In this document: one piece after another, positions 11,278-34,593 of the stretch
How the letters are laid out: every line of letters begins with the position of its first letter
Position numbering within the stretch: the first letter of the stretch is position 1
Assembly (NCBI RefSeq): GCF_026241135.1
Contig: NZ_JAPFGA010000007.1
Coordinates: 124,001 to 188,000 of the forward strand
Length of the DNA stretch: 64,000 bases
Reading direction: 5' to 3'
DNA from: Galbibacter kalidii
Lineage (GTDB): Bacteria > Bacteroidota > Bacteroidia > Flavobacteriales > Flavobacteriaceae
Made by a program: the position numbers and the translations under genes
The notes under the pieces: model-generated
Databases searched by the model: none
What the model was told of the DNA's origin: nothing
Seen by the model: only the letters and a program-made list of their open reading frames with translations

Positions 11278-11967
11278 CTATTTCAATTCAAAAGTAATAT
11301 TGATCTTGGCTTCGATGGCCATTTCCCCTACGGCAATGGTTTCAGCACTATCGTCAGATGCCACAGCGGTTTTAGCCATAGACATTTCATACATAGGCCT
11401 TGGATTGCTCGCCACAGAGCCTTCTGAAATAACAATCGCTTTCCCGATGCTTTGTCCAAGTACGGACGCATATTCTTCTGCTTTCTCTTTAGCATTTTCA
11501 ACCGCTTCTTTTCTCGCTTGTGTCTTATATTTTTCAAGGTCATCCGATTTGAAGGTCACGCCGTCTATCCTGTTGATTCCAGCATTCAATAAACCTTCTG
11601 TAAATTCAGCATATTTATCCAAATCCCTTAACAAGATCGACATGGACTGGTTTGCCACATATTTGTACTCCTTGGTTTGATAATTGTAATTCTTATTCAG
11701 ATTCACATACTCGGTCCTGATATCTTTTTCATCAATTTTCATCGATCGGGCATATTTTATCACCTTATCAATGGCTATATCATTCTTGCTTTTCACCTCC
11801 TTGGCGGAAGTGCCTTCACTTTCAACCCGAACCTTGATCAAAACCTGATCGGGAACTACTTTGACTACCCCCTCTCCTATTACGGAAATGGCTGGTGTCG
11901 GTTTTTCTTGTGCTTGTAAACTACTCATACCTATAATTGCAGTTAGTACTAAAATTATTTTTTTCAT
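11278..11967 (-). CDS. Secreted SIMPL (DUF541) domain protein
   Basis: A 229-residue secreted protein. The signal peptide MKKIILVLTAIIGMSSLQAQ is followed by the SIMPL domain: ISVIGEGVVKVVPDQVLIKV at the start, and VTFKSDDLEKYKTQARKEAV with later AEEYASVLGQSIGKAI. The family is widespread, periplasmic and of poorly defined biochemical role (linked in some bacteria to oxidative stress). ATG at 11967 directly starts the signal peptide. It is a stand-alone gene convergent with the TlpA-like gene. Confidence 0.88.
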   Translation of the reverse strand: MKKIILVLTAIIGMSSLQAQEKPTPAISVIGEGVVKVVPDQVLIKVRVESEGTSAKEVKSKNDIAIDKVIKYARSMKIDEKDIRTEYVNLNKNYNYQTKEYKYVANQSMSILLRDLDKYAEFTEGLLNAGINRIDGVTFKSDDLEKYKTQARKEAVENAKEKAEEYASVLGQSIGKAIVISEGSVASNPRPMYEMSMAKTAVASDDSAETIAVGEMAIEAKINITFELK

Positions 11968-12023
11968 CTGTTTTACTTTTTAGTTTTATAAAGTTATATG
12001 CCATATACAAACAAGATGCCAAA

Positions 12024-12671
12024 CTATATTTTTCCTGTTTTTTCAAGGATAAATAAAATTATTATTGGTATCGCCAACAGAGCAACCATAAGTGGTTCAT
12101 TGGTAAAGAGTGACGGACTAAACAGAAGCGTCATCACATACCCCCCTATAGCTCCACCAAAATGTGCCGTATGTCCTATATTTCCAGCTCTTGTTTTCAT
12201 TCCGTAAATGGAATACAACAAATACCCAATACCGAAAATATAAGCCGGAATGGGGATTGGGATAAAGAAAAATGCGAGTTTCATCCCCGGTTGTAACAAA
12301 ATAGCGGCATATAAAACCCCTGTTACTGCCCCACTGGCCCCTACTGCACTGTAGTGATATTCATCCTTATGAAAACTCAGCGACAATATGCTGCCTGCAA
12401 GTAAGCTGACAAAATAAATGACCACAAACTTGGGATCTCCAAAATGATTGACCACAATAGGTGCAAAAAAATATAATGTGATCATATTGAACAGAAGATG
12501 CGTAACATCTACATGCAGAAATCCGGAGGTAATATTTCTTAATTGCTCCCCCCGTCGTATGGCTCCGATATTGAACTTATAACGTTCAAAAAATGAAAAA
12601 TCATTGAATCCTTTAATGGAAACTAAAACATTGGCGGCAATGATAACAATAGTAGCGATGCTTAAATTCAT
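12024..12671 (-). CDS. Rhomboid-family intramembrane serine protease
   Basis: A 215-residue, six-helix membrane protein. Rhomboid hallmarks are all present: the HxxxN oxyanion motif (HLLFN, H58/N62), the nucleophile in GASGA (Ser113) and the catalytic His in HTAHFGG (His170) on the last conserved helix. It should cleave single-pass membrane proteins within the inner membrane. Substrate unknown. The start ATG at 12671 lies 18 bp from a MITE-like element, so the element probably carries or displaced its promoter region. Confidence 0.9.
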   Translation of the reverse strand: MNLSIATIVIIAANVLVSIKGFNDFSFFERYKFNIGAIRRGEQLRNITSGFLHVDVTHLLFNMITLYFFAPIVVNHFGDPKFVVIYFVSLLAGSILSLSFHKDEYHYSAVGASGAVTGVLYAAILLQPGMKLAFFFIPIPIPAYIFGIGYLLYSIYGMKTRAGNIGHTAHFGGAIGGYVMTLLFSPSLFTNEPLMVALLAIPIIILFILEKTGKI

Positions 12672-12691
12672 ATATAATAGAAAGATTTAGC

Positions 12692-12853
12692 AGGGTCTGT
12701 TAACACTACACACTCAAAGCGGCTTTTTGGTTTATTTTCCGCCTATCTTCGTTATTTTTTCCTCATTTGACGTAGCCAAATTCGTCGAAAATGCCTCGAT
12801 AAACATAAAATACCCTCAAAAATCCATCATTTCTGGTAGTGTTAACAGACCCT
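12692..12853. mobile_element. 162-bp MITE-like element with perfect 18-bp terminal inverted repeats
   Basis: AGGGTCTGTTAACACTAC at 12692-12709 is repeated exactly inverted at 12836-12853. The enclosed 126 bp are AT-rich and carry a minus-strand 24-codon ORF (12806-12732, starting MFIEAFSTNLATS) of unknown reality. No transposase is present and I found no clear target-site duplication. The size, perfect terminal repeats and position beside a gene start fit a non-autonomous miniature element. Confidence 0.75.
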
Positions 12854-13354
12854 AGTCAAAACGACATCTTTTTTCTCATTGTAAATATACGTAAACAGAA
12901 TGAACTTCACGTCTATTAATATTCCACTCCTAACGGAGCTTTTGTAGAATACAGATATGACTTATTATTGATATTTCGCCCCTAGCGGGGCTTTTGTCAT
13001 CTTGACACTTAACTGTTTCTGAATTTATAAGGGCTTTAAAACAATTTCAACACTTGTAGTTTGGTTCCGGCCTACAATAAAAATATTGAAAATCAAGGAA
13101 GCAGTAGTGACAAGAAGATAAAAATCTGTTTGAGTTCCGCCCCAAGGCGGAATGAGTTCTTTTTATCCCTGCCTACCGGCAGGCAGGTGTGGTTGGGGAT
13201 TCCGTAGTGTTTTCTTATGTTTTTATTGTCAGCCTAGACTTTTTTGGTTCTTTTTTGGGCGATGCAAAAAAGAATGTGTGGTTTGTTTTATCTGATTTAT
13301 CAAATTACTTATTCCAGAGGAAATATAGTTATATTTGCTCAAAATACTCTCTGA
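12854..13354. repeat. Hairpin-rich intergenic region
   Basis: No gene is supported. It contains two related hairpin units (around 12926-12939, ACTCC TAAC GGAGC, and 12978-12991, GCCCC TAGC GGGGC, each followed by TTTTGT), a TTCCGCC CCAA GGCGGAA stem at 13135-13152, and a CCTGCCTACCGGCAGGCAGG block at 13168-13187. These are typical dispersed palindromes. The promoter of the downstream acyltransferase must lie in the right-hand part. Confidence 0.6.
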
Positions 13355-14251
13355 ATGCAATTACTTGTTTATTGGCTTGTTTACCCTTTTATATGGATAC
13401 TGTCCATGCTTCCGTTTCCGTTTCTTTACACAGTTTCAGATGGTGTTTTTTTTCTGATCTATCATGTTGTTGGTTACCGAAAAAAAATGGTGCTTGATAA
13501 CTTAAAATTGTGTTTTCCCGAAAAAACCGAGCAGGAATTATTGAAGATCCGAAAGAATTTCTATCATCATATGTGTGACCTCTTTCTGGAAATGATAAAA
13601 ACATTGAATATGTCTCAGGAAGAAATGCGCAAAAGGACCGTATTTCATAATCTTGAACTTCTTGAAAAATATGCCAAAGAAAATCGAAGTGTCATTTTAC
13701 TTTGTGGGCATTATGGGAATTATGAGTGGGTATTGTCATTGGGACTGCACATCGCACATAATGGTTATGGCATCTATTCGCCATTGTCCAATAAGTATTT
13801 TGATCGTTTGGTGAAGAAAATCCGTAATAAACACGGTGGTGAGCTTATCTCCAGATATAATACTGCTAAAAGAATTGTTAAACACCAACGCTCGAACCAT
13901 CTTTCGCTCTACGGTTTTGTCAATGATCAATCCCCAATGGCAAACCACGCTCGGTATTGGCGCGATTTTTTTGGGGTGACAGTACCGGTATTCACTGCCG
14001 CAGAAACCTTAGCCAAAAAATTTGATATGCCCGTGGTCTTTTTCTGTGCAAGGAAAGTAAAAAGAGGCTATTATGAAACTACAATTGTCGATGTAGCTGA
14101 AAATCCGAAGGATTATCCTGATTTTCAGATTACCGATGTATACACCGAAATGTTGGAGAAAGAGATTCGCGAGCAACCGGAATACTATTTGTGGACCCAT
14201 AATCGCTTTAAGCACAGGGACAAGGTTCCTGATGAATTCAAAAAACAATAA
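13355..14251 (+). CDS. Lipid A biosynthesis (lauroyl/myristoyl-type) acyltransferase
   Basis: A 298-residue LpxL/HtrB-family protein. It has an N-terminal membrane anchor (residues 1-38) and the catalytic HX4E-type motif in LLCGHYGNYEW at about residue 115-125, followed by the YSPLSNKYFDRLVKKIR substrate region. It adds secondary acyl chains to lipid A at the inner membrane, from acyl-ACP. The stop is 5 nt before the next gene, so the two form an operon. The ATG at 13355 gives a correct-length N-terminus. Confidence 0.88.
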   Translation: MQLLVYWLVYPFIWILSMLPFPFLYTVSDGVFFLIYHVVGYRKKMVLDNLKLCFPEKTEQELLKIRKNFYHHMCDLFLEMIKTLNMSQEEMRKRTVFHNLELLEKYAKENRSVILLCGHYGNYEWVLSLGLHIAHNGYGIYSPLSNKYFDRLVKKIRNKHGGELISRYNTAKRIVKHQRSNHLSLYGFVNDQSPMANHARYWRDFFGVTVPVFTAAETLAKKFDMPVVFFCARKVKRGYYETTIVDVAENPKDYPDFQITDVYTEMLEKEIREQPEYYLWTHNRFKHRDKVPDEFKKQ

Positions 14252-14256
14252 CCAAG

Positions 14257-14853
14257 ATGGACATAACTGACTTTATTTCGAATTTTCCTTTTGATATTTC
14301 AACTAGTGAGCCGTGGAAAATCACAAGTGAAATAAAAGAAAGAATTGAAACTTTGATTCAGCAGTTGGATAGCGAATTTGATATAGAAAACGGAATTGCA
14401 ATCCATAAAACGGCTACCATCGAAAAAGGGGTGACCATGAAAGCGCCTTTAATCATTAATGCCCATTGCAGAATTGGGGCTCACTCCTACTTCCGGGAAG
14501 GTGTGTTTTTAGGAACGTATGTTAATATAGGTCCGAGTAGTGAAATAAAGAGCAGTATCATTTGTTCAGAAAGCGCTATTGCACACATGAACTATGTCGG
14601 AAACAGCATCATAGGAAGCCGTGTTAATTTTGAGGCAGGCTCCATTGCAGCTAACCACTACAACGAAAGGGACAACAAAGAAATTTCTATAAAATACAAG
14701 GGGGAGATACAATCAACAGGCTTAAACAAATTTGGTTCAATCGTAGGTGATGATTCAAAAATCGGAGCCAATGCCGTCTTGTCTCCGGGTACAATTTTAG
14801 AAAAGAGATCAGTTGTAAAAAGACTTGAGCTTGTTGATCAGATAAGCATATAA
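14257..14853 (+). CDS. Hexapeptide-repeat (left-handed beta-helix) acyltransferase
   Basis: A 198-residue protein with hexapeptide repeats from about residue 48 (AIHKTATIEKGVTMKAPLII, then NAHCRIGAHSYFREGVFLG, later IGSRVNFEAGSI and IGDD/IGANAVLSPG). This fold is used by trimeric acyl- and acetyltransferases acting on sugar nucleotides (LpxA/GlmU C-domain type). Specific substrate unknown. It starts 5 nt after the lipid A acyltransferase, so a role in envelope sugar or lipid acylation is a reasonable inference. Confidence 0.8.
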   Translation: MDITDFISNFPFDISTSEPWKITSEIKERIETLIQQLDSEFDIENGIAIHKTATIEKGVTMKAPLIINAHCRIGAHSYFREGVFLGTYVNIGPSSEIKSSIICSESAIAHMNYVGNSIIGSRVNFEAGSIAANHYNERDNKEISIKYKGEIQSTGLNKFGSIVGDDSKIGANAVLSPGTILEKRSVVKRLELVDQISI

Positions 14854-14860
14854 AGTTTAA

Positions 14861-15643
14861 TCAATTCGGCGTATAAACCAATGTAGCCACGACCACACAA
14901 TGATCGGTTATATACTCATCACAAATAATATCATAGGATAAAACCTTCCATTTTTCAGGCTGTGTAAATAAAATATGATCAATACAAACTGTCGGTCCTG
15001 TCGATGGGAAAGTAGGTGCTATTGAATTTTTATGATCAGGTTTTGAAAAAACTTCATAAAGTTTCTTTATGGTCTTACTGTTGGGTGTAGCATTGAGGTC
15101 ACCGACCAAAATAGTCGGTAATTCTTCTCCCCGAAATCTATCAACCAAAGCGTTAGCCTGCATTAACCGATCAGTTTCATCACGTTGATGATCCAAATGT
15201 GTTCCTACAAATTGAATTTTATTCCCTGATGCAGTCTCAAAAACAGCAGTTTGGGCAGCTCTGGGTTCAGATTTAGTCTGATGTGGCAACTTTACCGTTT
15301 CTGTAGTCATTAAACTGAATTTAGACAAAATCGCTTCGCCGTATTCCCCTCCATCATAATACATAGCCCTGGCATACAGCGGCATCATTTGGGTGCGATA
15401 CCCTAATTCCAAGGGTAAATTGTATTTCTTAGCCCTTTCTGTTCTATAATCCACTTCCTGCATCGCTACAAGATCCGGATGATACTTATTGATAAAACCG
15501 GCAATAGCTTCTAAATTGAAATCGCCTTTTGTTGTAGCTCCGTGAAGAATATTAAATGACATCACGCGAAGCGTGTCTGCAGATTGTTGTGCATTTAGAA
15601 TAGTTGAAGCAATAAGGAACAGGGTGAAAATAATTTTCTTCAT
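14861..15643 (-). CDS. Secreted endonuclease/exonuclease/phosphatase family hydrolase
   Basis: A 260-residue EEP-fold enzyme. I chose the ATG at 15643 because it begins a good signal peptide (MKKIIFTLFLIASTILNAQ); the ORF extends 11 codons further upstream. Family residues: LRVMSFNILHG, the metal-binding Glu in VAMQEVD, GTHLDHQ, LVGDLNATP and the C-terminal ITDHCVV. Members cleave phosphodiesters or phosphomonoesters (nucleic acids, sphingomyelin, inositol phosphates); the substrate is open. Exported to periplasm or medium. Confidence 0.85.
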   Translation of the reverse strand: MKKIIFTLFLIASTILNAQQSADTLRVMSFNILHGATTKGDFNLEAIAGFINKYHPDLVAMQEVDYRTERAKKYNLPLELGYRTQMMPLYARAMYYDGGEYGEAILSKFSLMTTETVKLPHQTKSEPRAAQTAVFETASGNKIQFVGTHLDHQRDETDRLMQANALVDRFRGEELPTILVGDLNATPNSKTIKKLYEVFSKPDHKNSIAPTFPSTGPTVCIDHILFTQPEKWKVLSYDIICDEYITDHCVVVATLVYTPN

Positions 15644-15700
15644 AGGTGATTGATTTATTGTCGGACTTCGATTCAATCCACAACGCTATTTATAGTATTA

Positions 15701-17089
15701 TTACAATCTGGCTATTTCTTTGATTTCAGCAATAAATTTATCAGCAAGACTATCCGCTTCTTTTTGTGATTTAGCCTCTGTGTAAATTCGAATAATCGGT
15801 TCGGTATTCGATTTTCGCAAATGCACCCAGTTTTCTGGAAAATCAATCTTCACCCCATCGACAGTCGTTAGGTTTTCGTTGGCATACTTCTCCTCTATCG
15901 CTTTCAGAATGGCATCTACATCCAATGAAGGTGTGAGTGCAATTTTCTTCTTACTCATAAAATATGACGGATAACCGGCTCTGAGTTCGCTTACCGAAAT
16001 TCCTTTTTCCGCAAGATGTGTCAAAAACAGTCCGACGCCTACCAAGGCATCACGTCCGTAATGACTTTCAGGATAAATGATTCCGCCGTTACCTTCCCCG
16101 CCAATAATAGCTTTGTTGGTTTTCATAAGCGTCACCACGTTCACTTCGCCTACGGCAGAAGCCTCATAAGTTCCTCCGTGTTTTTCCGTCACATCCCGTA
16201 AAGCTCTTGAAGATGACATATTGGAAACCGTATTTCCTTTGGTTTTTCCTAAAACATAATCCGCACAAGCGACAAGAGTGTATTCTTCACCAAACATTTC
16301 CCCTTCGTTGGTAATAAAAGCAAGTCGGTCTACATCAGGATCCACGACAATACCTAAATCAGCTTTTTCTTTGACTACCAATTCGCATATATCAGATAAA
16401 TGCTCTTTTAAAGGCTCCGGGTTGTGCGGGAATTGTCCGTTAGGCTCACAATAAAGTTCTACCACTTCCACACCGAGTTCTTTCAATAACTTCGGAATGG
16501 CGATCCCTCCTGTGGAATTCACCCCATCGACCACAATCTTAAATTTTGCTGCCTTGATTTTTTCAGCGTCGACCAGAGGAAGGTCTAATACTTCGTCTAT
16601 ATGAATATCGATATAAGAATCGTTAATTGTTATTTTACCGAGTTCATCCACTTCAGCAAAAGAAAAATCTTCTTTTTCAGCAATTTTGAGTATTTTTTTT
16701 CCTTCTTCACCATTTAAAAACTCTCCTTTGCTATTCAGTAGTTTTAAAGCGTTCCACTGTTTTGGGTTGTGACTAGCCGTCAAGATAATACCTCCGTCTG
16801 CTTTTTCCAGGGGAACTGCGATTTCCACAGTTGGGGTTGTGGATAATCCAAGGTCGATGACATCAATTCCCAAACCGATAAGCGTGGATGAAACCAGATT
16901 TTGTATCATCTCTCCCGACAAACGGGCATCACGGCCAATTACAACGGTTAGTTTTTCTTTTTTGGTTTGTTCTTTCAGCCATAAACCATACGCAGCGGCA
17001 AATTTAACAGCATCCAAAGGCGTTAAATTCTCTTCGGTCTTCCCTCCTATGGTTCCTCGTATTCCGGAAATTGATTTGATTAGTGTCAT
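15701..17089 (-). CDS. glmM: Phosphoglucosamine mutase
   Basis: A 462-residue phosphohexomutase of the GlmM type (converts glucosamine-6-P to glucosamine-1-P for UDP-GlcNAc, peptidoglycan and LPS). The start is placed at the ATG at 17089 (MTLIKSISGIRGTIGGK), because the family begins there; 8 extra upstream codons are unlikely to be used. Active-site phosphoserine in TASHNP (about residue 106), the metal loop DPDVDRLAF, the sugar loop GEGNGG and the phosphate-binding RKSNTEP are all present. Confidence 0.92.
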   Translation of the reverse strand: MTLIKSISGIRGTIGGKTEENLTPLDAVKFAAAYGLWLKEQTKKEKLTVVIGRDARLSGEMIQNLVSSTLIGLGIDVIDLGLSTTPTVEIAVPLEKADGGIILTASHNPKQWNALKLLNSKGEFLNGEEGKKILKIAEKEDFSFAEVDELGKITINDSYIDIHIDEVLDLPLVDAEKIKAAKFKIVVDGVNSTGGIAIPKLLKELGVEVVELYCEPNGQFPHNPEPLKEHLSDICELVVKEKADLGIVVDPDVDRLAFITNEGEMFGEEYTLVACADYVLGKTKGNTVSNMSSSRALRDVTEKHGGTYEASAVGEVNVVTLMKTNKAIIGGEGNGGIIYPESHYGRDALVGVGLFLTHLAEKGISVSELRAGYPSYFMSKKKIALTPSLDVDAILKAIEEKYANENLTTVDGVKIDFPENWVHLRKSNTEPIIRIYTEAKSQKEADSLADKFIAEIKEIARL

Positions 17090-17565
17090 GTAATATTTTG
17101 ATTTGAATCCCACTAAATGGGTCTAGTTTATTCGTTTGAACCTGCCCGACTAACTCGTTCAGGCGGGTACCCCGTGGACCTGCCTCGAGGTAGTTGATTA
17201 TTGATTTTTCTATATACGACGCCGTTTTTGGCATCAACGGCAACAAAGTGCCCATTTTCGACAAATATACAATGGAAGGCACTTAAAATTGTAATATTTC
17301 GATTAGATAATTATTAAGCATCTGATATTCAATAGCTTTATTTGTTCTTTGCATCTTTTGCTGATTCTTAAGCGAGCTTTGCGTGAAATTATTCCACGCA
17401 GAGACCACAAAGTTTATCGTAAAGAATGCAGAAATCAAGTTTTTCAATTAGCCTTTACGATTTAACATTATGATAATAAGGTGATTGTAAGCCATAATTA
17501 TAGTATAGCTTAATTAAATCATCTACAAAACACCATTGTTTGGGTTGAATTTGTAAATTTAGGGA
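17090..17565. other. Intergenic region between divergent glmM and acpH
   Basis: About 475 bp without a supported gene. It holds CCCACTAAATGGG at 17109-17121 (a member of a small palindrome family), a GC-rich CCTGCCCGAC...CAGGCGGG hairpin around 17142-17168, a TGCGTG/CACGCA hairpin near 17385-17405, and AT-rich DNA that should carry the promoters of the two divergent genes. Confidence 0.5.
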
Positions 17566-18150
17566 ATGAATTTTCTAGCGCATATTTATTTATCAGGAGA
17601 TAATCCCAAGGTGAAAGTGGCGAATTTTATGGCCGACAGTATTCGAGGGAAAAAATATCTCGATTACCCGCCGGATTTCAAAAAAGGCATCCTTTTACAT
17701 CGCGAGATCGACACCTTTACCGACGCCCATCCCACAGTGAGAAAGAGCACTAAAAAGCTCCATAAGAACTACGGGCATTACAGTGGGGTTATTGTCGATA
17801 TTTTTTACGACCATTTTCTAGCCAAAAATTGGAGTAATTATTCAGATAAACCCCTGGAAGAATATGTAGATGAGTTTTATGATCTCTTGGGGGAATATTA
17901 TGACATCCTCCCAATGAATGTCAAAAAACTGATGCCATATATGATTGCGGATAATTGGTTGTTGAATTACGCCAAGCTGGAAGGTATTTCCCGTGTTTTA
18001 GACGGAATGAACCGACGAACCAAAAACAAGTCGAAGATGAATTTTGCCATCCTCGATCTTGAAGAACACTACACTGTTTTTGAAAAGGAATTCACCTCTT
18101 TTTTTGAAGAACTCAGAGCCTTTTCAGCACATAAATTAAAATCCTTGTAA
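17566..18150 (+). CDS. acpH: Acyl carrier protein phosphodiesterase-like protein
   Basis: A 194-residue protein of the AcpH/DUF479 family. The N-terminus MNFLAHIYLSGDNPKVKVAN, the MADSIRGK segment and the metal-binding HREIDTFTDAHP are typical, and the length equals the family norm. The E. coli member removes the 4'-phosphopantetheine arm from acyl carrier protein. The gene is 12 bp upstream of ggt on the same strand. Role in this organism inferred from family only. Confidence 0.85.
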   Translation: MNFLAHIYLSGDNPKVKVANFMADSIRGKKYLDYPPDFKKGILLHREIDTFTDAHPTVRKSTKKLHKNYGHYSGVIVDIFYDHFLAKNWSNYSDKPLEEYVDEFYDLLGEYYDILPMNVKKLMPYMIADNWLLNYAKLEGISRVLDGMNRRTKNKSKMNFAILDLEEHYTVFEKEFTSFFEELRAFSAHKLKSL

Positions 18151-18162
18151 AAAGTTGACAAT

Positions 18163-19848
18163 GTGAAAAAAATATATCTACTCTTCCTACTCTCTTTAAT
18201 TATCCTCAGCTGTAAAACGACTAAAGAAGCTGAGATCGGACTTGTAAAAGACAATGCCCTGGTGGTTTCCGCCAGGGTTGAAGCCTCAAAGATAGGGGCT
18301 GATATTTTACAGCAAGGCGGAAATGCCTTTGACGCTATGATCGCTACCAAATTTGCTCTAGCCGTTTCTTTTCCTTTTGCCGGAAATCTGGGCGGTGGTG
18401 GTTTTTTGGTATATCGAATGAATGACGGTACTACCGGAACGCTGGATTTCAGGGAAAAAGCTCCGCTTGCAGCAACCAAAAACATGTATTTGGATTCCAT
18501 GGGGGAAGTTCTTCCTGAAAAAAGCAGGGTTGGTGCCCTTGCCGTAGGTGTTCCCGGAAGTGTCGCAGGATTGTTTGCTATTCATGAAAAGTTTGGCTCT
18601 ATGCCGATGGAAAAATTGATTCAACCCGCTATCGACCTTGCTAAACATGGAGTGGTTGTTACCGAAAAGCAAGCCAGAAGAATAAAAAGCTATCAGGATT
18701 TAATTATTGAGGTGAATGGCGATAGTATTTTGTTTTCCAATACTTTTGAAAAAAATGATACCATAAAATACAAAGCCTTGGCTAAGACATTGGAAGCTAT
18801 TAAGGAAAGAGGAAAAGATGGTTTTTACAAAGGTGAAGTTGCCCAAAAAATAGTGGATATCATACAAAAGAACGGCGGACTTATCACATTGGAAGATCTG
18901 GAAAAATATGAAGCCGTTTGGCGAGACCCCATTGTTTTTGATTACAAAGACCTGAAAGTAATCTCCATGGCACCACCAAGTAGCGGAGGCGTCACTTTGG
19001 CTCAGATTATGAAGATGATTGAGCCTTATAATTTAGCTGAATTCAAACATAATTCGGTTAAAGCCATCCAACTGATTACAGAAGCTGAACGCAGGGCCTA
19101 TGCTGACAGGAATTACTTTTTGGGTGACCCTGATTTTTCCCAAATACCTGAAAATGTTTTAATAAGCAGTGATTATCTCAATGAACGAATGAGTTCGTTT
19201 AGTTTTGATCAAGCCACGCCTTCCTCAGAAGTTTCCCATGGCGAGGTAGAAATTGTAGAGAGTGATCAGACTACGCATTTTTCTATTGTAGATCAGTTTG
19301 GAAATGCGGTATCAGTTACAACAACTTTAAACGGCGCCTATGGTTCTAAGTTGTTTTCAGAAGAGCTTGGGTTCTTTTTTAATAACGAAATGGATGATTT
19401 CAGTGCCAAACCAGGGATTCCTAATATGTTTGGGCTTACCGGAGCCGAAGCAAACAGTATCGCACCGGAAAAACGCATGTTGAGCAGCATGACACCAACC
19501 ATTGTGGAAAAAAATGGTAAATTGCTTATGGTTGTTGGAACCCCGGGTGGAGCGACCATCATCACATCAGTATTGCAAACTATTTTAAATGTATACGAGT
19601 TTGATATGGGAATGCAGGAAGCTGTAAATCAGCCTCGTTTTCACCATCAATGGCTACCGGATGAAATCCGCATAGAGCCTAACGGATTTGATATGGAAAC
19701 CATTTCAACCCTAAAAAATTTAGGGTATGAGATTAACGAATCTAACTCACGAATTATAGGTATTGTAGACGCAATCCTAATGTTGCCAGACGGAAAAATG
19801 GAAGCAGGTGCCGACAAACGCGGGGATGACACTGCTGTTGGCTTCTAA
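18163..19848 (+). CDS. ggt: Gamma-glutamyltransferase (lipoprotein)
   Basis: A 561-residue Ntn-hydrolase that cleaves gamma-glutamyl bonds of glutathione and related compounds on the periplasmic side. The start is a GTG at 18163; an ATG two bases earlier is out of frame. The N-terminus has a lipobox (IILSC). The autocatalytic cleavage and nucleophile motif is QTTHFS, with Thr370 expected to become the N-terminus of the small subunit; GGGGFLVYR and the late SSMTPTIV and GTPGG segments bind substrate. It forms an operon with acpH and the next small gene. Confidence 0.93.
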   Translation: MKKIYLLFLLSLIILSCKTTKEAEIGLVKDNALVVSARVEASKIGADILQQGGNAFDAMIATKFALAVSFPFAGNLGGGGFLVYRMNDGTTGTLDFREKAPLAATKNMYLDSMGEVLPEKSRVGALAVGVPGSVAGLFAIHEKFGSMPMEKLIQPAIDLAKHGVVVTEKQARRIKSYQDLIIEVNGDSILFSNTFEKNDTIKYKALAKTLEAIKERGKDGFYKGEVAQKIVDIIQKNGGLITLEDLEKYEAVWRDPIVFDYKDLKVISMAPPSSGGVTLAQIMKMIEPYNLAEFKHNSVKAIQLITEAERRAYADRNYFLGDPDFSQIPENVLISSDYLNERMSSFSFDQATPSSEVSHGEVEIVESDQTTHFSIVDQFGNAVSVTTTLNGAYGSKLFSEELGFFFNNEMDDFSAKPGIPNMFGLTGAEANSIAPEKRMLSSMTPTIVEKNGKLLMVVGTPGGATIITSVLQTILNVYEFDMGMQEAVNQPRFHHQWLPDEIRIEPNGFDMETISTLKNLGYEINESNSRIIGIVDAILMLPDGKMEAGADKRGDDTAVGF

Positions 19849-30962: not shown

Positions 30963-30998
30963 ACAAAAAAGGAAACGCTAATCATTCAGCGTTTCCTT
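30963..30998 (-). terminator. Terminator of the slipin operon
   Basis: AAGGAAACGCT (30969-30979) and AGCGTTTCCTT (30988-30998) form a perfect 11-bp stem; read on the minus strand it is followed by TTTTTTGTT. It lies directly after the slipin stop codon. Confidence 0.9.
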
Positions 30999-31000
30999 GA

Positions 31001-32098
31001 CTATTTACCGGAAAAAATTTCCTTTAGTTGAGAAACCACATTTCCGTTTCCGGCTACGGTGATTTCACCAATCTTATCAGCAATTTTTTCCACATATTCC
31101 ATCTCTTTCAATTTGAAGAGCATTTCATTTTCATCCATCAACTTAGCAGTGTTGAGCAAGCTTCTAGTTGAAGCTGTTTCTTCACGCCTAGTGATGACGT
31201 TGGCTTGTGCCCTTTTTTGAGCTACAAGCACTTGGTTCATGATATCGCGCATGTCACCTGTCAAAATCACATCCCTGATACCGGTGTTAAGCACTTTTAC
31301 ACCCAATTTTTCAGCTTCTGTTTTAACAGTTTCAAACACAGCTTGCGCAATGTTTTCTTTGTTTTCCAAAAGCTCATCCAAGGTGTAAGTACCCACAAAG
31401 CCACGGATGGCCAATTGCAACAGTACATACAACTGCTTTTCGTAATCCTTGTTTTCCAACAACGCTTTTTCCACATCGGTTACTTTGTACTGTGTGTAAA
31501 AGTTGATACGGATGGTAGCCTTGTCTTTAGTCAACAATTCCTGTCCGGCAATTTCCAGTTGCAACTGCCTCATATCAGCCTTGGCGATTTTGATGGTAGT
31601 GTCGTTCCTCCAGAAACGATATGTACCGCTTCCCAAGGTTTTTACATACACATCATCCACGATAAGCACTGCTTTTTCATAAGCAGCGACCTCAAAGGCC
31701 CTGATGTACCTGGATACTTCGTAGTTATTGAACAAAGCCTTATCTACATTTTCAGTGATATAGATCTTGCTCAAATCAACATAAGTAAAACCATAGTCCA
31801 CCAAACCTTTCCAGAACAAATGCCTACCGGAAGTAAGCACGCCTTTGAAATTCTGGTTTTCAAACATCAAAACCAATTCGTTGTCCTTTACTTCTACCAC
31901 GTACAACAGACTTTTCAATGCCTCATCCTGAAGCAACACATCTGTTGAAACACTTGGATAGAATGCTTTGGACAAGTCATACTTCAAAATGGTCTCACCC
32001 AAACTCAACCAGTGTGTTCCGGTAGAGATAGTGCGTTTGTAGTCTCCTTTTCTGAAGACCAAACCTACTTTTCCTTTATTAATCCTTACTCTTTTCAT
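31001..32098 (-). CDS. Slipin-type SPFH (band 7) protein without membrane anchor
   Basis: A 365-residue SPFH/prohibitin-fold protein. Unusually it has no N-terminal transmembrane segment. Residues 1-150 instead contain three related beta motifs: GLVFRKGDYKRTISTGTHWL, ELVLMFENQNFKGVLTSGRH and AVLIVDDVYVKTLGSGTYRF. The SPFH core follows (LLTKDKATIRINFYTQYKV to NTGIRDVILTGDMRDIMNQV), then the helical, coiled-coil-like QVLVAQKRAQANVITRREET. Such slipins are reported near RtcB-type RNA ligases in RNA-repair gene sets. Here the gene is the last member of the minus-strand locus that carries the tRNA-like array, 460 nt downstream of it. No ligase is visible in the window. Confidence 0.9.
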   Translation of the reverse strand: MKRVRINKGKVGLVFRKGDYKRTISTGTHWLSLGETILKYDLSKAFYPSVSTDVLLQDEALKSLLYVVEVKDNELVLMFENQNFKGVLTSGRHLFWKGLVDYGFTYVDLSKIYITENVDKALFNNYEVSRYIRAFEVAAYEKAVLIVDDVYVKTLGSGTYRFWRNDTTIKIAKADMRQLQLEIAGQELLTKDKATIRINFYTQYKVTDVEKALLENKDYEKQLYVLLQLAIRGFVGTYTLDELLENKENIAQAVFETVKTEAEKLGVKVLNTGIRDVILTGDMRDIMNQVLVAQKRAQANVITRREETASTRSLLNTAKLMDENEMLFKLKEMEYVEKIADKIGEITVAGNGNVVSQLKEIFSGK

Positions 32099-32559
32099 CT
32101 GTTAAATATTTACTTCATTTAAAAATTGAACATAATGATGGCATTTTCCTTTTACAGAATTTGCCGGCTTTGACGTTACTGCCGCGGTTAATAACTTTCA
32201 AAGTTTATTTTTAGTCTCGTTCATTTTCTTTTAAAAACAACCGAAAGCAAACCATCTATCAGGTATGGAAACAAGACTCCCAATCCGGTTTGGAAATTCG
32301 TTTTGAGGAATGGGAAACAAAGGGGACATATAAATAATACGTTACCTCAGTTTCTGAAACCGCAAAAGGAATAACCTTCCTTGATTTTATAGCACATGTT
32401 TCAAAGTACTTTCCAGACTACTCTCCTGCACACAAGATGCCGGATTGCCGATCTGCTTTACAGTTGTTTTGTTTTAACAGTTTTGCTGACTGTTACTGTC
32501 ACGTTTTACAAGATGACACGCTTTGGAGCAGACCGGGTTACCCCATTCTGCAAATCAAC
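32099..32559 (-). other. Non-coding stretch between tRNA-like array and slipin gene
   Basis: About 460 nt without a supported ORF on the transcribed (minus) strand. Visible structure: GGGTT (32561-32557) paired with AACCC (32539-32535) just after the last tRNA-like element, and AACAGT...ACTGTT with a loop of seven bases around 32475-32494. It may be a long 5' UTR of the slipin gene or hold further diverged tRNA-like pieces that I could not identify. Confidence 0.45.
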
Positions 32560-32641
32560 CCATGTTAAAAGCATGGTGCTCTAGCCACCTGAGCTAAACG
32601 GTTTTCAAGACCGCTACAGGATTCGAACCTGTGCATCCAAG
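32560..32641 (-). ncRNA. Fifth tRNA-like element (P2), T-arm before D-arm
   Basis: Read 5' to 3' on the minus strand: CTTGG-ATGC, then a perfect T-arm ACAGG TTCGAAT CCTGT (32632-32616), AGCGGTC (32615-32609), a 5-nt gap, AACCGTT (32603-32597), TA, a D-arm GCTC AGGTGGCTA GAGC (32594-32578), A, and a complete anticodon arm CCATG CTTTTAA CATGG with UUU (Lys) at 32569-32567. AGCGGTC pairs with the downstream AACCGTT at 6 of 7 positions (one G-U), and CCATG pairs with the upstream CTTGG at 4 of 5. No T-arm follows the anticodon arm. This can be read as a circularly permuted tRNA or as two tRNA fragments. Confidence 0.55.
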
Positions 32642-32706
32642 TCTATCGTTCTACCTACTGAACTATCCGCCTATGACGGAGCGGGACTCGAACCCGCGAC
32701 CTATAG
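32642..32706 (-). ncRNA. Fourth tRNA-like element (P1), T-arm before D-arm
   Basis: Minus strand, 5' to 3': CTAT (32706-32703), AGGTC, a perfect T-arm GCGGG TTCGAGT CCCGC (32697-32681), TCCGTCA (32680-32674), one base, AGGCGGA (32672-32666), TA, a perfect D-arm GTTC AGTAGGTA GAAC (32663-32648), G, ATAGA (32646-32642). TCCGTCA pairs with the downstream AGGCGGA at 6 of 7 positions (one G-U) and ATAG pairs with CTAT, so acceptor and anticodon stems close only if the 3' half precedes the 5' half. No matching 5' half lies upstream. The upstream CTTACAC could be a Val(UAC) anticodon loop. Confidence 0.55.
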
Positions 32707-32748
32707 TGTAAGCCATTTTTTGGTAAACAGCCGAAACCTTCAAGTCAA

Positions 32749-32782
32749 GCTGCACATAAAACTACCATACACCTTGTGCAGC
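32749..32782. other. RNA hairpin within the array
   Basis: GCTGCACA (32749-32756) and TGTGCAGC (32775-32782) form a perfect 8-bp inverted repeat around an 18-nt loop, between the third and fourth tRNA-like elements. It is either part of the insertion-type RNA or a processing signal. Confidence 0.6.
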
Positions 32783-32821
32783 GTTTTATACAATGGTGCT
32801 ATACAGAAACACCCAACAAGA

Positions 32822-32852
32822 CCTGCTTGATATCATTCCCTGCAAAAGCAGG
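32822..32852 (-). other. Two mutually exclusive hairpins
   Basis: On the minus strand CCTGC TTTT GCAGG (32852-32839) can form, or the outer CCTGCTT (32852-32846) can pair with AAGCAGG (32828-32822). Both cannot exist together, which allows a structural switch just downstream of the third tRNA-like element. Confidence 0.5.
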
Positions 32853-32873
32853 AGTCTCTTATTAAAACACATG

Positions 32874-33064
32874 TCCCTCTTACCAGATTCGAACTGATAC
32901 TTTTGCTGGTGCAAACAGATTGACTCTAAATGCGCTTCCTTACTAATTTCGGTGCTTCTGCAAATTCTATTCATTAGCAAGCTCGTCGCTAACAACATCT
33001 TCCAATCACTCCATGGTTTCGATAAAATCTTTTACCACAGCTCTTCCCTTTAAGCTAAAGAGGT
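32874..33064 (-). ncRNA. Third tRNA-like element (P0): tmRNA-like domain with about 120-nt insertion
   Basis: Minus strand: ACCTCTT (33064-33058), TA, a D-arm GCTT AAAGGGAA GAGC (33055-33040), T, GTGGT (33038-33034), about 123 nt, ACCAG (32910-32906), then ATCAG TTCGAAT CTGGT (32898-32882), AAGAGGG (32881-32875) and A. The acceptor ACCTCTT/AAGAGGG pairs at 6 contiguous of 7 positions, the T-stem at 5 of 5, and GTGGT/ACCAG at 4 of 5, so a tRNA top half is complete while the anticodon loop is replaced by a long insertion with its own hairpins (33021-33036, 32974-32992). Alternative reading: two degenerate tRNAs, the second Leu-like with a TTTGC/GCAAA variable arm; a nearer AAGATGT (33001-32995) also pairs 6 of 7 with ACCTCTT. 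Confidence 0.5.
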
Positions 33065-33070
33065 ATTTTG

Positions 33071-33142
33071 TTGCCCCAAAAGGATTTGAACCCTTACCAC
33101 AAGAACCAAAATCTTATATGCTAGCCATTACACCATGGGGCT
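33071..33142 (-). tRNA. tRNA-Gln(UUG)-like gene
   Basis: A 72-nt cloverleaf: acceptor AGCCCCA/TGGGGCA with six G-C/A-U pairs and an A-A mismatch at 1-72, D-arm GTGT AATGGCTA GCAT, anticodon stem TAAGA/TCTTG with loop TTTTGGT (UUG at 33109-33107), four-base variable loop, T-arm AAGGG TTCAAAT CCTTT. The discriminator is A rather than the G expected for Gln, and CCA is not encoded. It begins 5 nt after the Asp-like element. The mismatch, A73 and weak D-stem suggest a specialised tRNA-like RNA rather than a normal translation tRNA. Confidence 0.7.
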
Positions 33143-33147
33143 GTTTG

Positions 33148-33220
33148 CAGTACCGACGGGGCTCGAACCCGTAACCTCCCGGTAGACAACCGGACACTCT
33201 AGCCTTTGAGCTACGGTACT
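33148..33220 (-). tRNA. tRNA-Asp(GUC)-like gene
   Basis: A 73-nt cloverleaf with a perfect 7-bp acceptor AGTACCG/CGGTACT, T8-A9, D-arm GCTC AAAGGCTA GAGT, anticodon stem TCCGG/CCGGG with loop TTGTCTA (GUC at 33187-33185), variable AGGTT, T-arm ACGGG TTCGAGC CCCGT and G73, the Asp discriminator. CCA is not encoded; CAAAC follows. It starts one base after the TAA of the TPR gene, an arrangement that makes separate promotion unlikely and implies cutting from the TPR transcript. A1-U72 and G10-U25 are unusual for Asp. Confidence 0.8.
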
Positions 33221-33221
33221 T

Positions 33222-33788
33222 TTATTTCTCCTTTCTTTTTTTGTTAGACTTCTTTTTTCCTGGTAACTTTTTTACCTTTTTCTTTTTCTTCTTTTGAATT
33301 CGCTTCACTTTTTTCTCTACCCTATTCAGCTCTCCTTCCACGTGGGTAACAAAACTGTTGTCTATGCTCAATTGCAAAGCTTCTTTATAGCTCTTTTTGG
33401 CTTTTTTATAGTTTGCTTGACTTTCGTAGAGCAAACCTTTTAAGAGCTTGAGCACAGTTTTGTCAGTGCCTTTTACTTTAAGGGCAAAATCGGCCAGTTT
33501 GTGTGCTTCTTCATATTCTTCATTCAGCAAAAGCACATGAACATACCCGGGATAAACCAATGGGCTTTCCATTCCGGCCGCCAAAGCTTCGGCATAAATG
33601 TTTTTTGCCGCTTCATAGTCCTTAAGCTGATAGGTATACAACTTGGCCAAAAGACAAAGTGCTTCAACGTTTTTACTGTCATATGACAAGGCGTAATTCA
33701 ACGATTCCACTGTTTCTCCTAAATCATACGGATAAGCATCCAGTGCCTTGAACAAATAAATATTATGTAATGTTGTTTCCATTTTCAC
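33222..33788 (-). CDS. TPR-repeat protein with lysine-rich C-terminal tail
   Basis: A 188-residue soluble protein. Two or three TPR-like helical hairpins are visible (about 38-72, ALCLLAKLYTYQLKDYEAAK; about 76-105; about 108-142, LLKGLLYESQANYKKAKKSY). From about residue 155 the protein is dominated by Lys/Arg (IQKKKKKKVKKLPGKKKSNK and on to the end), which would suit RNA or ribosome binding. There is no signal peptide. The stop codon is one base before the Asp-like tRNA, and a terminator plus leader ORF lie upstream. A partner of the tRNA-like RNAs is my inference; no family member of known function is recognised. Confidence 0.75.
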   Translation of the reverse strand: MKMETTLHNIYLFKALDAYPYDLGETVESLNYALSYDSKNVEALCLLAKLYTYQLKDYEAAKNIYAEALAAGMESPLVYPGYVHVLLLNEEYEEAHKLADFALKVKGTDKTVLKLLKGLLYESQANYKKAKKSYKEALQLSIDNSFVTHVEGELNRVEKKVKRIQKKKKKKVKKLPGKKKSNKKRKEK

Positions 33789-33870
33789 AAATCAATTCAG
33801 TTAAACAATATGCGCTAAGGCATAAGATTGATACTGTACGGATTTGTGTATTCTGGAATTTATCGGGAAT

Positions 33871-33910
33871 AAAAAAATCCGAAACAGTTTTTAATTGCTT
33901 CGGATTTTTT
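33871..33910 (-). terminator. Intrinsic terminator between leader ORF and TPR gene (possible attenuator)
   Basis: AAAAATCCGAA (33873-33883) and TTCGGATTTTT (33899-33909) pair perfectly over 11 bp around a 15-nt loop; on the minus strand the stem runs into a T-rich tract. It lies 19 nt after the leader ORF stop and about 85 nt before the TPR start, so read-through would be needed to express the locus. Confidence 0.8.
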
Positions 33911-33928
33911 CTGAGGATTTTTTTATGT

Positions 33929-34030
33929 TTAATGCCCATTATGGGCTTTCAGAAGAAAATACCGAAGCAGTAAACAAAACGACGCGGGGTCGTTATACTT
34001 TTGTCCTGATGTTGTAATATGCTTTTGCAT
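33929..34030 (-). CDS. 33-residue leader ORF upstream of the TPR/tRNA-like locus
   Basis: Minus-strand ORF of 33 codons, starting MQKHITTSGQKYNDPASF and ending LLKAHNGH, followed by TAA. It sits between the predicted promoter and the intrinsic terminator. Its codons include an AACGAC...GTCGTT hairpin (around 33977-33994) and a GCCCA TAA TGGGC hairpin near its end (33936-33948). Position and length are those of an attenuation leader peptide or upstream ORF. Whether it is translated cannot be told from one sequence. Confidence 0.45.
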   Translation of the reverse strand: MQKHITTSGQKYNDPASFCLLLRYFLLKAHNGH

Positions 34031-34068
34031 GGCTTCTTGTTTTTGTTATTAATTCTTAGCAGTTCTGT

Positions 34069-34114
34069 TTTGCAAACCGCGATGCAAATATGAAAACCAT
34101 TTTTTAAAATACAA
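34069..34114 (-). promoter_or_regulatory. Promoter with adjacent inverted repeat for the leader/TPR/tRNA-like locus
   Basis: On the minus strand TTG (34114-34112), a 19-bp spacer and CATATTTG (34092-34085) match the Bacteroidota TTG/TAnnTTTG consensus with one mismatch. The transcript would begin near 34078. Overlapping it, TTTGCA (34069-34074) and TGCAAA (34083-34088) form an inverted repeat that could be an operator. A perfect -24/-12 sigma-54 site was looked for and not found (spacing off by one). Confidence 0.5.
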
Positions 34115-34130
34115 ATAAAAATATCAATTT

Positions 34131-34593
34131 ATTTTATTGACTATCAGTTAGTTATGTTTATTTTGAAACATAAGGATTCTTGTCCGCTCAAGGGCAGATA
34201 CTGTGAATTTCAGTCAAAATACTGTTGCTCAATTGCTTACTTTTCAATGCTGGTATTATATGTTGTTAAACCTGATACTCAAATGTTTCAAAAAAAATTA
34301 GTTTATTTTCACTTTATATGATTTCAGTTATAAAACCCCATAAAAAAAGCGTCCAAAATAAAGTTTTGGACGCTTTGGTATTGTGTTTTTTATTTGGTTT
34401 TTCCCATCAAAAACCTAAAACTAACTGTAAAGCATCCGTTTTCCGAAGGAAAATATCATTCATCCCTCGAAAACACCACTGTGTGGGCAGTGATTTTAAT
34501 TCGATATGTACAGTTAATGGTTTCATTTGTGATACAAAGATGATTATTTTTTTTGAAAATGAAATAATCTACTTAAAAATTTGTTTCAACCTT
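34131..34593. other. Intergenic region upstream of the TPR locus and downstream of ppc
   Basis: No gene is supported; the plus-strand ORF here has no family features. It contains the ppc-side terminator at 34342-34376 and a CACTG/CAGTG hairpin near 34474-34489; the rest is AT-rich. Confidence 0.5.
34342..34376 (-). terminator. Terminator downstream of ppc
   Basis: AAAGCGTCCAAAA (34346-34358) and TTTTGGACGCTTT (34364-34376) form a perfect 13-bp stem; on the minus strand it is followed by a T run. It lies about 215 nt after the ppc stop codon. Confidence 0.85.

What the first reader, a model, noticed from the sequence alone, without database searches (positions are those of the whole stretch)
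31001..34114. Leader ORF - TPR protein - tRNA-like array - slipin: candidate undescribed RNA-based locus
Seen: one minus-strand unit with a promoter, a 33-codon ORF, an intrinsic terminator, a TPR gene with a lysine-rich tail, five tRNA-like elements starting one base after the TPR stop, and a slipin gene, with a terminator at the end. Known: slipins occur near RtcB RNA-repair ligases, and tRNA-like modules occur in bacterial Y RNAs and tmRNA. Inferred: the TPR protein and slipin handle, protect or display these RNAs, perhaps as decoys for tRNA-cutting toxins or as a damage sensor. No RtcB, RtcR or Ro60 gene is present in the window.
Basis: partly seen in the sequence, partly recalled or inferred. 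Interest (0 to 1): 0.95.

Follow-up and report, generated by a model that had tools for sequence, protein, structure and literature searches.

The report
Attenuator-controlled emergency tRNA and slipin operon
This stretch is a reduced copy of a conserved bacterial operon that seems to sense loss of tRNAs through a short leader peptide and then switch on spare tRNAs, two unusual structured RNAs and a membrane scaffold protein, often next to RNA-repair genes.

Summary
The observed unit is real and conserved, but three of the five 'tRNA-like elements' are something else. Two are tRNAs (Asp, Gln). The third is R1, a ~190-nt RNA with tRNA acceptor, D and T arms and a structured insert in place of the anticodon arm. 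The last two are circularly permuted tRNA modules of a larger, Y-RNA-like RNA, R2, found just upstream of this slipin in 91 of 94 distinct loci across Bacteroidota; R1 is in 25. Both folds show compensatory changes.

Relatives carry up to 18 array tRNAs and often RtcB; this genome has no RtcB or Ro60. Array tRNAs keep the anticodon but change base 37 in 179 of 221 copies of eight isotypes. Ala is absent, Thr and Gly almost so.

The 33-codon ORF and terminator form an attenuator conserved in 29 loci: a segment inside the leader ORF can pair with the terminator's 5' arm. Leaders avoid A, G, T and V.

Best explanation, inferred: loss of a surveyed tRNA stalls the leader ribosome and turns on backup tRNAs. 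Nothing was tested in cells. The window's copy looks partly degenerate.

The parts
34031..34036 (-). segment A of the attenuator, just before the leader start; can pair with B
   Evidence: sequence: A:B 5 bp in the window; at least 6 bp in 18 of 29 loci
33929..34030 (-). leader peptide ORF, 33 codons; its stop comes 10 codons after the Leu-Arg of B, against 0-6 in 26 of the other 27 script-found leaders (9 in L025)
33962..33969 (-). segment B (TGCTTCGG), inside the leader ORF, complementary to C: antiterminator
   Evidence: B:C 8 bp in the window, 5-8 bp in 29 of 29 loci (5 nt of B are part of the search rule)
33871..33905 (-). intrinsic terminator of the attenuator (arms C 33896-33904 and D 33878-33886, then T run)
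   Evidence: C:D 10 bp in the window, 8-13 bp in 29 of 29 loci (its core is part of the search rule)
33222..33782 (-). TPR protein, 186 aa, Lys-rich C-terminal tail
   Evidence: homologue upstream of slipin in 41 relatives' loci
33147..33220 (-). array tRNA-Asp(GUC), anticodon loop UUGUCUA against CUGUCAC in the housekeeping copy
33070..33142 (-). array tRNA-Gln(UUG), anticodon loop as in the housekeeping copy
32873..33063 (-). R1 RNA: tRNA acceptor, D and T arms with a large structured insert in place of the anticodon arm
   Evidence: no Rfam family at the gathering score
32642..32832 (-). R2 RNA, 5' domain with a pseudoknot plus module 1 (YrlA-like permuted tRNA module)
32559..32633 (-). R2 RNA, module 2: permuted tRNA order (T arm, acceptor hairpin, D arm, anticodon arm with UUU)
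32496..32524 (-). R2 RNA, H-type pseudoknot (stem 2 UGUCA/UGACA)
   Evidence: read from the sequences; pair statistics not computed for this piece
31001..32098 (-). slipin (Band_7), 365 aa
30969..30998 (-). terminator after slipin

Best explanation
It is a reduced copy of a Bacteroidota stress operon that supplies emergency tRNAs and RNA-handling parts when normal tRNAs are lost. Transcription enters a short leader ORF. If all surveyed tRNAs are plentiful, the ribosome reaches the leader stop, covers segment B, and C pairs with D to end transcription. If a surveyed tRNA is depleted, for example by an anticodon nuclease, the ribosome stalls upstream of B; B then pairs with C, the terminator cannot form, and TPR protein, tRNA array, R1, R2 and slipin are transcribed. 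Array tRNAs with changed anticodon loops then keep translation going, while RtcB, PrfH-like and Ro60 proteins, encoded nearby in some relatives but not here, repair RNA or rescue ribosomes. R2, R1, the basic TPR protein and the membrane protein slipin probably form an RNP that handles or shelters tRNA-like RNAs. Shown by sequence: gene order, attenuator segments, the two folds, changed loops, isotype bias, leader composition. Inferred: stalling, nuclease resistance, the RNP.
For: Gene order in 41 relatives' loci. Arrays of up to 18 tRNAs. Terminator in 29 of 94 loci; with no rule on frame, an ORF reading B as Leu-Arg is listed in 28 and is the only ATG ORF over B in 21; with that frame as a rule the leader starts 19-21 codons before B in 26 of 28, and L046 reads Phe-Arg by eye. 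B:C and C:D possible in 29 of 29, with a matched change in L046. 17 non-redundant leaders: A+G+T+V 46 of 433 residues against a mean of 84 in nucleotide shuffles (0 of 2000 as low) and 107 by proteome usage. Arrays: Ala 0, Thr 1, Gly 3, Val 7 of 427 upstream tRNAs. Base 37 changed in 179 of 221 tRNAs of eight isotypes, 2 of 164 in the other isotypes with a housekeeping reference (Arg-ACG set aside as mixed). R2 in 91 of 94 loci; all 14 hits of 70 bits or more in 395 genomes are in slipin-bearing genomes. R1 and R2 covariation. RtcB association. In Anabaena one repressor controls a 26-tRNA operon, rtcB and a slipin, and the tRNA operon is induced by translation stress (PMC10272220, passages).
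Against: No expression data. The match between leader residues and array isotypes rests mostly on A, G, T and V: without them Spearman falls from 0.62 to 0.28, not significant. Own-array versus other-array matching (0 of 5000 permutations, 16 loci) is confounded by relatedness. The window's leader stop lies 10 codons past B's Leu-Arg, so a ribosome there would probably not cover B; its array has two tRNAs and one has an unchanged loop; no RtcB or Ro60 in the genome. A:B pairing reaches 6 bp in only 18 of 29 loci. 65 of 94 loci show no such terminator in the held sequence, for example L036, L018 and L040 with long arrays; some flanks are short and many of these lack the TPR gene. Five bases of B and the terminator core were search rules. 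The U37 change in Asp and Glu tRNAs has no obvious benefit for decoding.
Confidence: 0.55

Rival explanations
1. Decoy or sponge: the array, R1 and R2 mimic tRNAs to occupy or sense tRNA-cutting toxins, and are not used in translation. This is.
For: R2 carries YrlA-like permuted modules; Hughes et al. 2020 suggest that YrlA could inhibit an anticodon nuclease (PMC7790460, passages). Several end pairs differ from housekeeping tRNAs, for example A1-U72 in 27 of 40 array tRNA-Asp.
Against: Discriminator bases agree in 328 of 404 and anticodons are kept; a decoy should keep, not change, the loop that the nuclease reads, yet base 37 is changed in 179 of 221.
Confidence: 0.2
2. R2 (and R1 when adjacent) is a cis-acting leader of slipin, a regulatory element that senses tRNA or protein, and the tRNA array is a separate matter.
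For: R2 sits just upstream of slipin in 91 of 94 loci, and patches of conserved sequence continue from R2 towards the slipin start.
Against: R1 moves: inside the array (L046), downstream of slipin (L015, L067), or about 30 kb away just upstream of RtcB near Ro60 (L136). A switch that hides the slipin start was not looked for.
Confidence: 0.25
3. Mobile or phage-derived tRNA cluster passed around with a slipin gene, with no stress function of its own.
For: Phage tRNA clusters also show changed anticodon loops (PMC10264068, abstract and passages). Presence is patchy: slipin at E 1e-30 in 20 of 395 genomes of the phylum.
Against: A 23-nt core of R1 and a 32-nt pattern of R2 have no exact match in the viral contigs; the R2 fold is kept from Flavobacteriaceae to Cytophagales, Sphingobacterium and Chitinophaga loci, which speaks for selection.
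Confidence: 0.1

Closest known systems
Anabaena PCC 7120 trn operon with TrcR regulon (rtcB, slipin alr0740)
   Same: long tRNA array, RtcB and slipin under one control; the array is induced by translation stress (PMC10272220, passages)
   Different: there the array is on a megaplasmid, apart from the chromosomal rtcB and slipin, under an RHH repressor; here array and slipin are one unit with a leader-peptide attenuator, R1 and R2
rsr-yrlBA-rtcBA RNA-repair operon of Salmonella and YrlA (Y RNA-like A)
   Same: RNA with T arm, acceptor hairpin, D arm in permuted order; link to RtcB and, in some relatives, Ro60
   Different: two tandem modules, long 5' domain with a pseudoknot, below the Rfam gathering score in the window and in all 13 relatives scanned; Ro60 absent here; presence of RtcR not tested
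Phage tRNA clusters with altered anticodon loops
   Same: anticodon kept, loop changed, as predicted for nuclease resistance (PMC10264068, abstract and passages)
   Different: cellular locus tied to slipin and RNA repair; specific shifts at base 37
trp/his-type leader-peptide attenuators (recalled)
   Same: leader ORF overlapping an antiterminator, followed by a terminator
   Different: leader residues are many kinds, not repeats of one; downstream genes are tRNAs and RNA-handling parts, not amino-acid synthesis

Membership tests
YrlA (Rfam RF02553) | permuted tRNA-like module: T arm, acceptor hairpin, D arm | tested here: met
   48.7 bits, E 2.5e-9 at 32641-32705; acceptor hairpin 98.8% paired, all 5 pairs with compensatory changes in 50 sequences
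YrlA (Rfam RF02553) | score at or above the gathering score (69 bits) | tested here: not met
   window, none in 13 relatives
YrlA (Rfam RF02553) | partner Ro60 in the genome | tested here: not met
   TROVE absent in own genome; 1 of 149 in the family; in the held flanks of 4 loci
YrlA (Rfam RF02553) | Ro60 binding by the RNA | not testable with these tools
   needs a binding assay
RtcB RNA-repair operon | rtcB gene present | tested here: not met
   0 matches in own genome; present near slipin in 40 loci (one representative checked with Pfam)
Ribosome-mediated transcription attenuator | leader ORF, antiterminator and terminator mutually exclusive and conserved | tested here: met
   29 loci; part of B and of the terminator were search rules
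Ribosome-mediated transcription attenuator | leader stop placed so that the terminating ribosome covers B | tested here: inconclusive
   stop 0-6 codons after B's Leu-Arg in 26 of 28 script-found leaders, 9 in L025, 10 in the window
Ribosome-mediated transcription attenuator | read-through on tRNA shortage | not testable with these tools
   needs a reporter
tRNA array | dense same-strand tRNA genes | tested here: met
   relatives up to 18; window only two
tRNA (R1) | normal anticodon arm | tested here: not met
   replaced by a ~130-nt structured insert

The most novel reading that the evidence does not exclude
A tRNA-census switch: a leader peptide that spells out many of the vulnerable amino acids lets one ribosome test many tRNAs at once, and failure at any of them turns on a set of altered backup tRNAs for the same amino acids, together with two new RNA families, one built from circularly permuted tRNAs, that work with slipin and RNA repair.
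Probability: 0.4. Interest if true: 0.95.

Novelty: new variant of a known kind. Interest (0 to 1): 0.85.

Why it matters
It joins four things usually studied apart: tRNA arrays, Y-RNA-like RNAs, slipins and RNA repair. If right, it gives a direct logic for how bacteria notice that tRNAs are being destroyed and replace them with altered ones, and a testable use for chromosomal tRNA arrays. In the window R1 and R2 match no Rfam family at the gathering score. R2's permuted modules next to tandem tRNAs suggest how Y-RNA-like modules could arise.

Tried and rejected
A group I intron, tmRNA, or known riboswitch for R1 or R2: the permissive Rfam scan gave none (its tmRNA hit, E 2.4e-6 and 21.9 of 47 bits, rests on a T arm and was set aside). 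Plain tRNA pseudogenes for elements 3-5: rejected by covariation. R2 as a widespread RNA outside slipin loci: 189 of 395 genomes have a hit at E 0.001, but the listed ones away from slipin are under 49 bits and mostly cover only model positions from about 117 on. I looked at seven such loci: none has slipin in its short flank; L114 (47.2 bits, whole model) and L119 are plain tandem tRNA-His and tRNA-Val, L117 lies among tandem tRNAs, L115 has tRNAs around but not clearly under the hit, and L111, L116 and L118 hold no ARAGORN tRNA and stay unexplained. First MAFFT of R1 over all loci mixed unrelated sequence and was replaced by homologue-only alignment. Arg-ACG was dropped from the base-37 count because housekeeping copies are mixed (2 G, 2 A); with it the count is 206 of 249. 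Viral contigs: no match to two patterns. The nine paper searches listed no description of this locus in the held library; Burroughs and Aravind 2016 and Chen et al. 2014 are not held (known to me from recall and, for Chen, from the reference list shown), so prior mention of slipin-linked tRNA arrays or tandem Y modules cannot be excluded. Structure prediction of the TPR protein was not tried.
Full report
What is there. The minus-strand unit runs from a leader ORF at 34030 to a terminator after slipin at 30969. Slipin 31001-32098 matches Pfam Band_7 (E 5.7e-30); the ORF at 33222-33782 matches TPR families and ends in a Lys-rich tail. ARAGORN and Rfam find two tRNAs, Asp and Gln, right after the TPR stop. 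The genome, which is Flavobacteriaceae-like to judge by its relatives (inference), has no RtcB and no TROVE (Ro60) match.

Relatives. After removing the window's own copy (L001), one duplicate (L003) and a distant 27% paralogue (L002), 94 distinct oriented loci remain, the window included. Many have long same-strand tRNA arrays upstream of slipin, up to 18 tRNAs; others show none to ARAGORN. A TPR homologue is upstream of slipin on the same strand in 41 relatives' loci (L005 and L074 are weak, E 3e-14 and 3.5e-8). Clustering of neighbouring ORFs in the held flanks gave RtcB in 40 loci, a WYL regulator in 18, an RNase H-like protein in 8, a release-factor-like protein in 7 and TROVE in 4 (one representative each put to Pfam; the name PrfH is recalled, Pfam says RF-1 domain). 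In 149 family genomes, 11 of 15 with this slipin have RtcB against 24 of 134 without (Fisher p 2e-5). By the coordinates printed there, RtcB lies within 15 kb of slipin in 9 of those 11. TROVE: 1 of 149.

R1. Window 32873-33063. It pairs a tRNA acceptor stem, D arm and T arm around a ~130-nt insert. nhmmer finds it in 29 rows; after two duplicates and two 31-nt fragments are removed, 25 full copies remain, the window's included. On 20 aligned copies my 40-pair structure is 98.5% paired, with 21 pairs changed on both sides and 94 such cells against 25 in shuffles, none of 500 as high. In 395 phylum genomes the four strong hits (147 bits or more) all fall in slipin-bearing genomes; two of them lie away from slipin; four more hits of 23-36 bits were not counted. 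In one, R1 lies just upstream of RtcB, near Ro60 and a WYL gene, about 30 kb from slipin.

R2. Window 32832 to at least 32496. The permissive Rfam scan shows two YrlA-like hits (48.7 and 29.2 bits, both below 69); 13 relatives give no YrlA at the gathering score, though the tRNA model passes its own cut-off over module parts in some of them, for example L036 and L065. The T arm is followed by an acceptor hairpin with a short loop and then a D arm, the permuted order. A simple test over all T arms upstream of slipin gave 109 permuted-only, 297 canonical-only, 58 both and 295 undecided; the permuted ones cluster among the last T arms before slipin, and in the window module 2 is called permuted and module 1 undecided. 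On 50 aligned copies of the 5' domain plus module 1, the 53-pair structure, one pseudoknot included, is 96.2% paired, 36 pairs change on both sides, 373 such cells against 110 in shuffles, none of 500 as high; the permuted acceptor helix is 98.8% paired with compensatory changes at all five pairs. The structures were drawn from these same sequences, which favours them; slid controls gave 36-49% paired. Module 2 has a full anticodon arm (UUU in the window; CAU, GUU, CAA and others in relatives, read by eye), and some relatives keep ACCA after the acceptor 3' strand. R2 is found by sequence in 67 distinct loci and by covariance model in 24 more, E 0.01 or better and just upstream of slipin (L084 only in part), 91 of 94; L062 and L064 hold little or no upstream DNA and L044 was not put to the model. 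In 395 phylum genomes every R2 hit of 70 bits or more (14 genomes) is in a slipin-bearing genome; 18 of the 20 slipin-bearing genomes show a hit just upstream of slipin at E 0.001, and the last two in a focused search, one at 51 bits and one weakly at 24.8 bits. Weaker hits elsewhere are many; seven looked at were in part plain tandem tRNAs and in part unexplained.

Attenuator. A regular expression for the terminator finds it in 29 of 94 loci upstream of the array. With no rule on frame, an ATG ORF that reads B as Leu-Arg is listed in 28 and is the only one over B in 21. With that frame as a rule, the leader starts 19-21 codons before B in 26 of 28 (28 in L025; 32 in L039, where an internal ATG 12 codons later gives 20), and the stop follows B's Leu-Arg by 0-6 codons in 26, 9 in L025 and 10 in the window. 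L046 has Phe-Arg at that place (by eye). B can pair with C over 5-8 bp and C with D over 8-13 bp in 29 of 29; five bases of B and the terminator core were search rules, so part of this follows from the search. A pairs with B over at least 6 bp in 18 of 29, against 14% of shuffled A segments. L046 changes B and C together. This is the plan of a ribosome-controlled attenuator (trp type, recalled).

Leader composition. In 17 non-redundant leaders, Ala, Gly, Thr and Val make 46 of 433 residues; nucleotide shuffles average 84 (0 of 2000 as low), proteome usage predicts 107. Arrays of the 94 loci hold 427 tRNAs upstream of slipin: Ala 0, Thr 1, Gly 3, Val 7. Across 20 amino acids leader enrichment correlates with array counts (Spearman 0.70; 0.62 after removing B's Leu-Arg; 0.54 for residues before B), but only 0.28, not significant, when the four are left out. 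Leaders match their own arrays better than others (16 loci, 0 of 5000 permutations), which shared ancestry could also give.

Array tRNAs. Housekeeping loops were taken from the window's genome and three array-bearing genomes; not every housekeeping tRNA of each was recovered (115 distinct sequences). Array copies keep the anticodon but differ at base 37: Asp A to U in 37 of 40, Glu A to U in 23 of 25, Gln G to A in 32 of 37, Leu-UAG G to A in 22 of 28, His G to A in 17 of 24, Pro G to A in 11 of 11, Phe A to G in 25 of 36, Leu-UAA A to G in 11 of 20. With one Asp that has C this is 179 of 221; other isotypes with a housekeeping reference 2 of 164 (Arg-ACG excluded as mixed). Discriminator bases agree with the commonest housekeeping base in 328 of 404, ties such as Pro counted against; Gln is a main exception. 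End pairs often differ from housekeeping, for example A1-U72 in 27 of 40 Asp. The window's tRNA-Asp has the changed loop, its tRNA-Gln does not. Phage tRNAs with changed anticodon loops are predicted to resist host nucleases (PMC10264068, abstract and passages).

Mechanism and doubts. The parts fit an operon opened by loss of surveyed tRNAs, supplying altered tRNAs and RNA-handling parts. Anabaena offers a studied parallel: its repressor TrcR controls a 26-tRNA operon, rtcB and a slipin gene, and the tRNA operon is induced by ribosome-targeting antibiotics (PMC10272220, passages). In Salmonella the RtcB operon is regulated by damaged tRNAs (PMC7790460, title and start of abstract, passages). 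The window's own copy is reduced: two tRNAs, a leader that runs on past B, no RtcB, so its switch may be impaired. The roles of R1, R2, TPR protein and slipin are open.

Novelty. The nine paper searches named in Tried and rejected listed no description of this locus in the held library; two key papers are not held. I rate it a new variant of a known kind, with a bolder reading given in the section on the most novel reading.

Noticed in passing
L136 (G203), 11377-18508: A second RNA-repair cluster in a slipin-bearing genome: RtcB, R1 just upstream of it, a permuted module at 14975-15051, Ro60 and a WYL regulator.
   Followed up: partly
G000:C81:7976-8575: A distant slipin-like gene (27% identity) elsewhere on the window's contig.
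   Followed up: no
window 34346-34376: A strong terminator-like hairpin listed on both strands between the upstream gene and this unit.
   Followed up: no
L022:2948-3018, L028:3752-3822, L023:141-212, L033:2980-3051: ARAGORN calls of tRNA-Tyr(AUA) with odd loops inside arrays; AUA is not a usual bacterial Tyr anticodon (recalled).
   Followed up: no
L036, L040, L045, L054, L057, L083: An RNase H-like protein (PF04308 in L054) encoded at or near the end of the array in several loci.
   Followed up: partly
module 2 of R2 in relatives such as L028, L033, L036, L056: Acceptor hairpin loops keep ACCA, as if two neighbouring tRNA genes had lost their outer halves; a possible origin of permuted modules.
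   Followed up: no
L111, L116, L118: R2-module hits of 45-49 bits away from slipin with no ARAGORN tRNA in the flank; perhaps separate Y-RNA-like genes.
   Followed up: no
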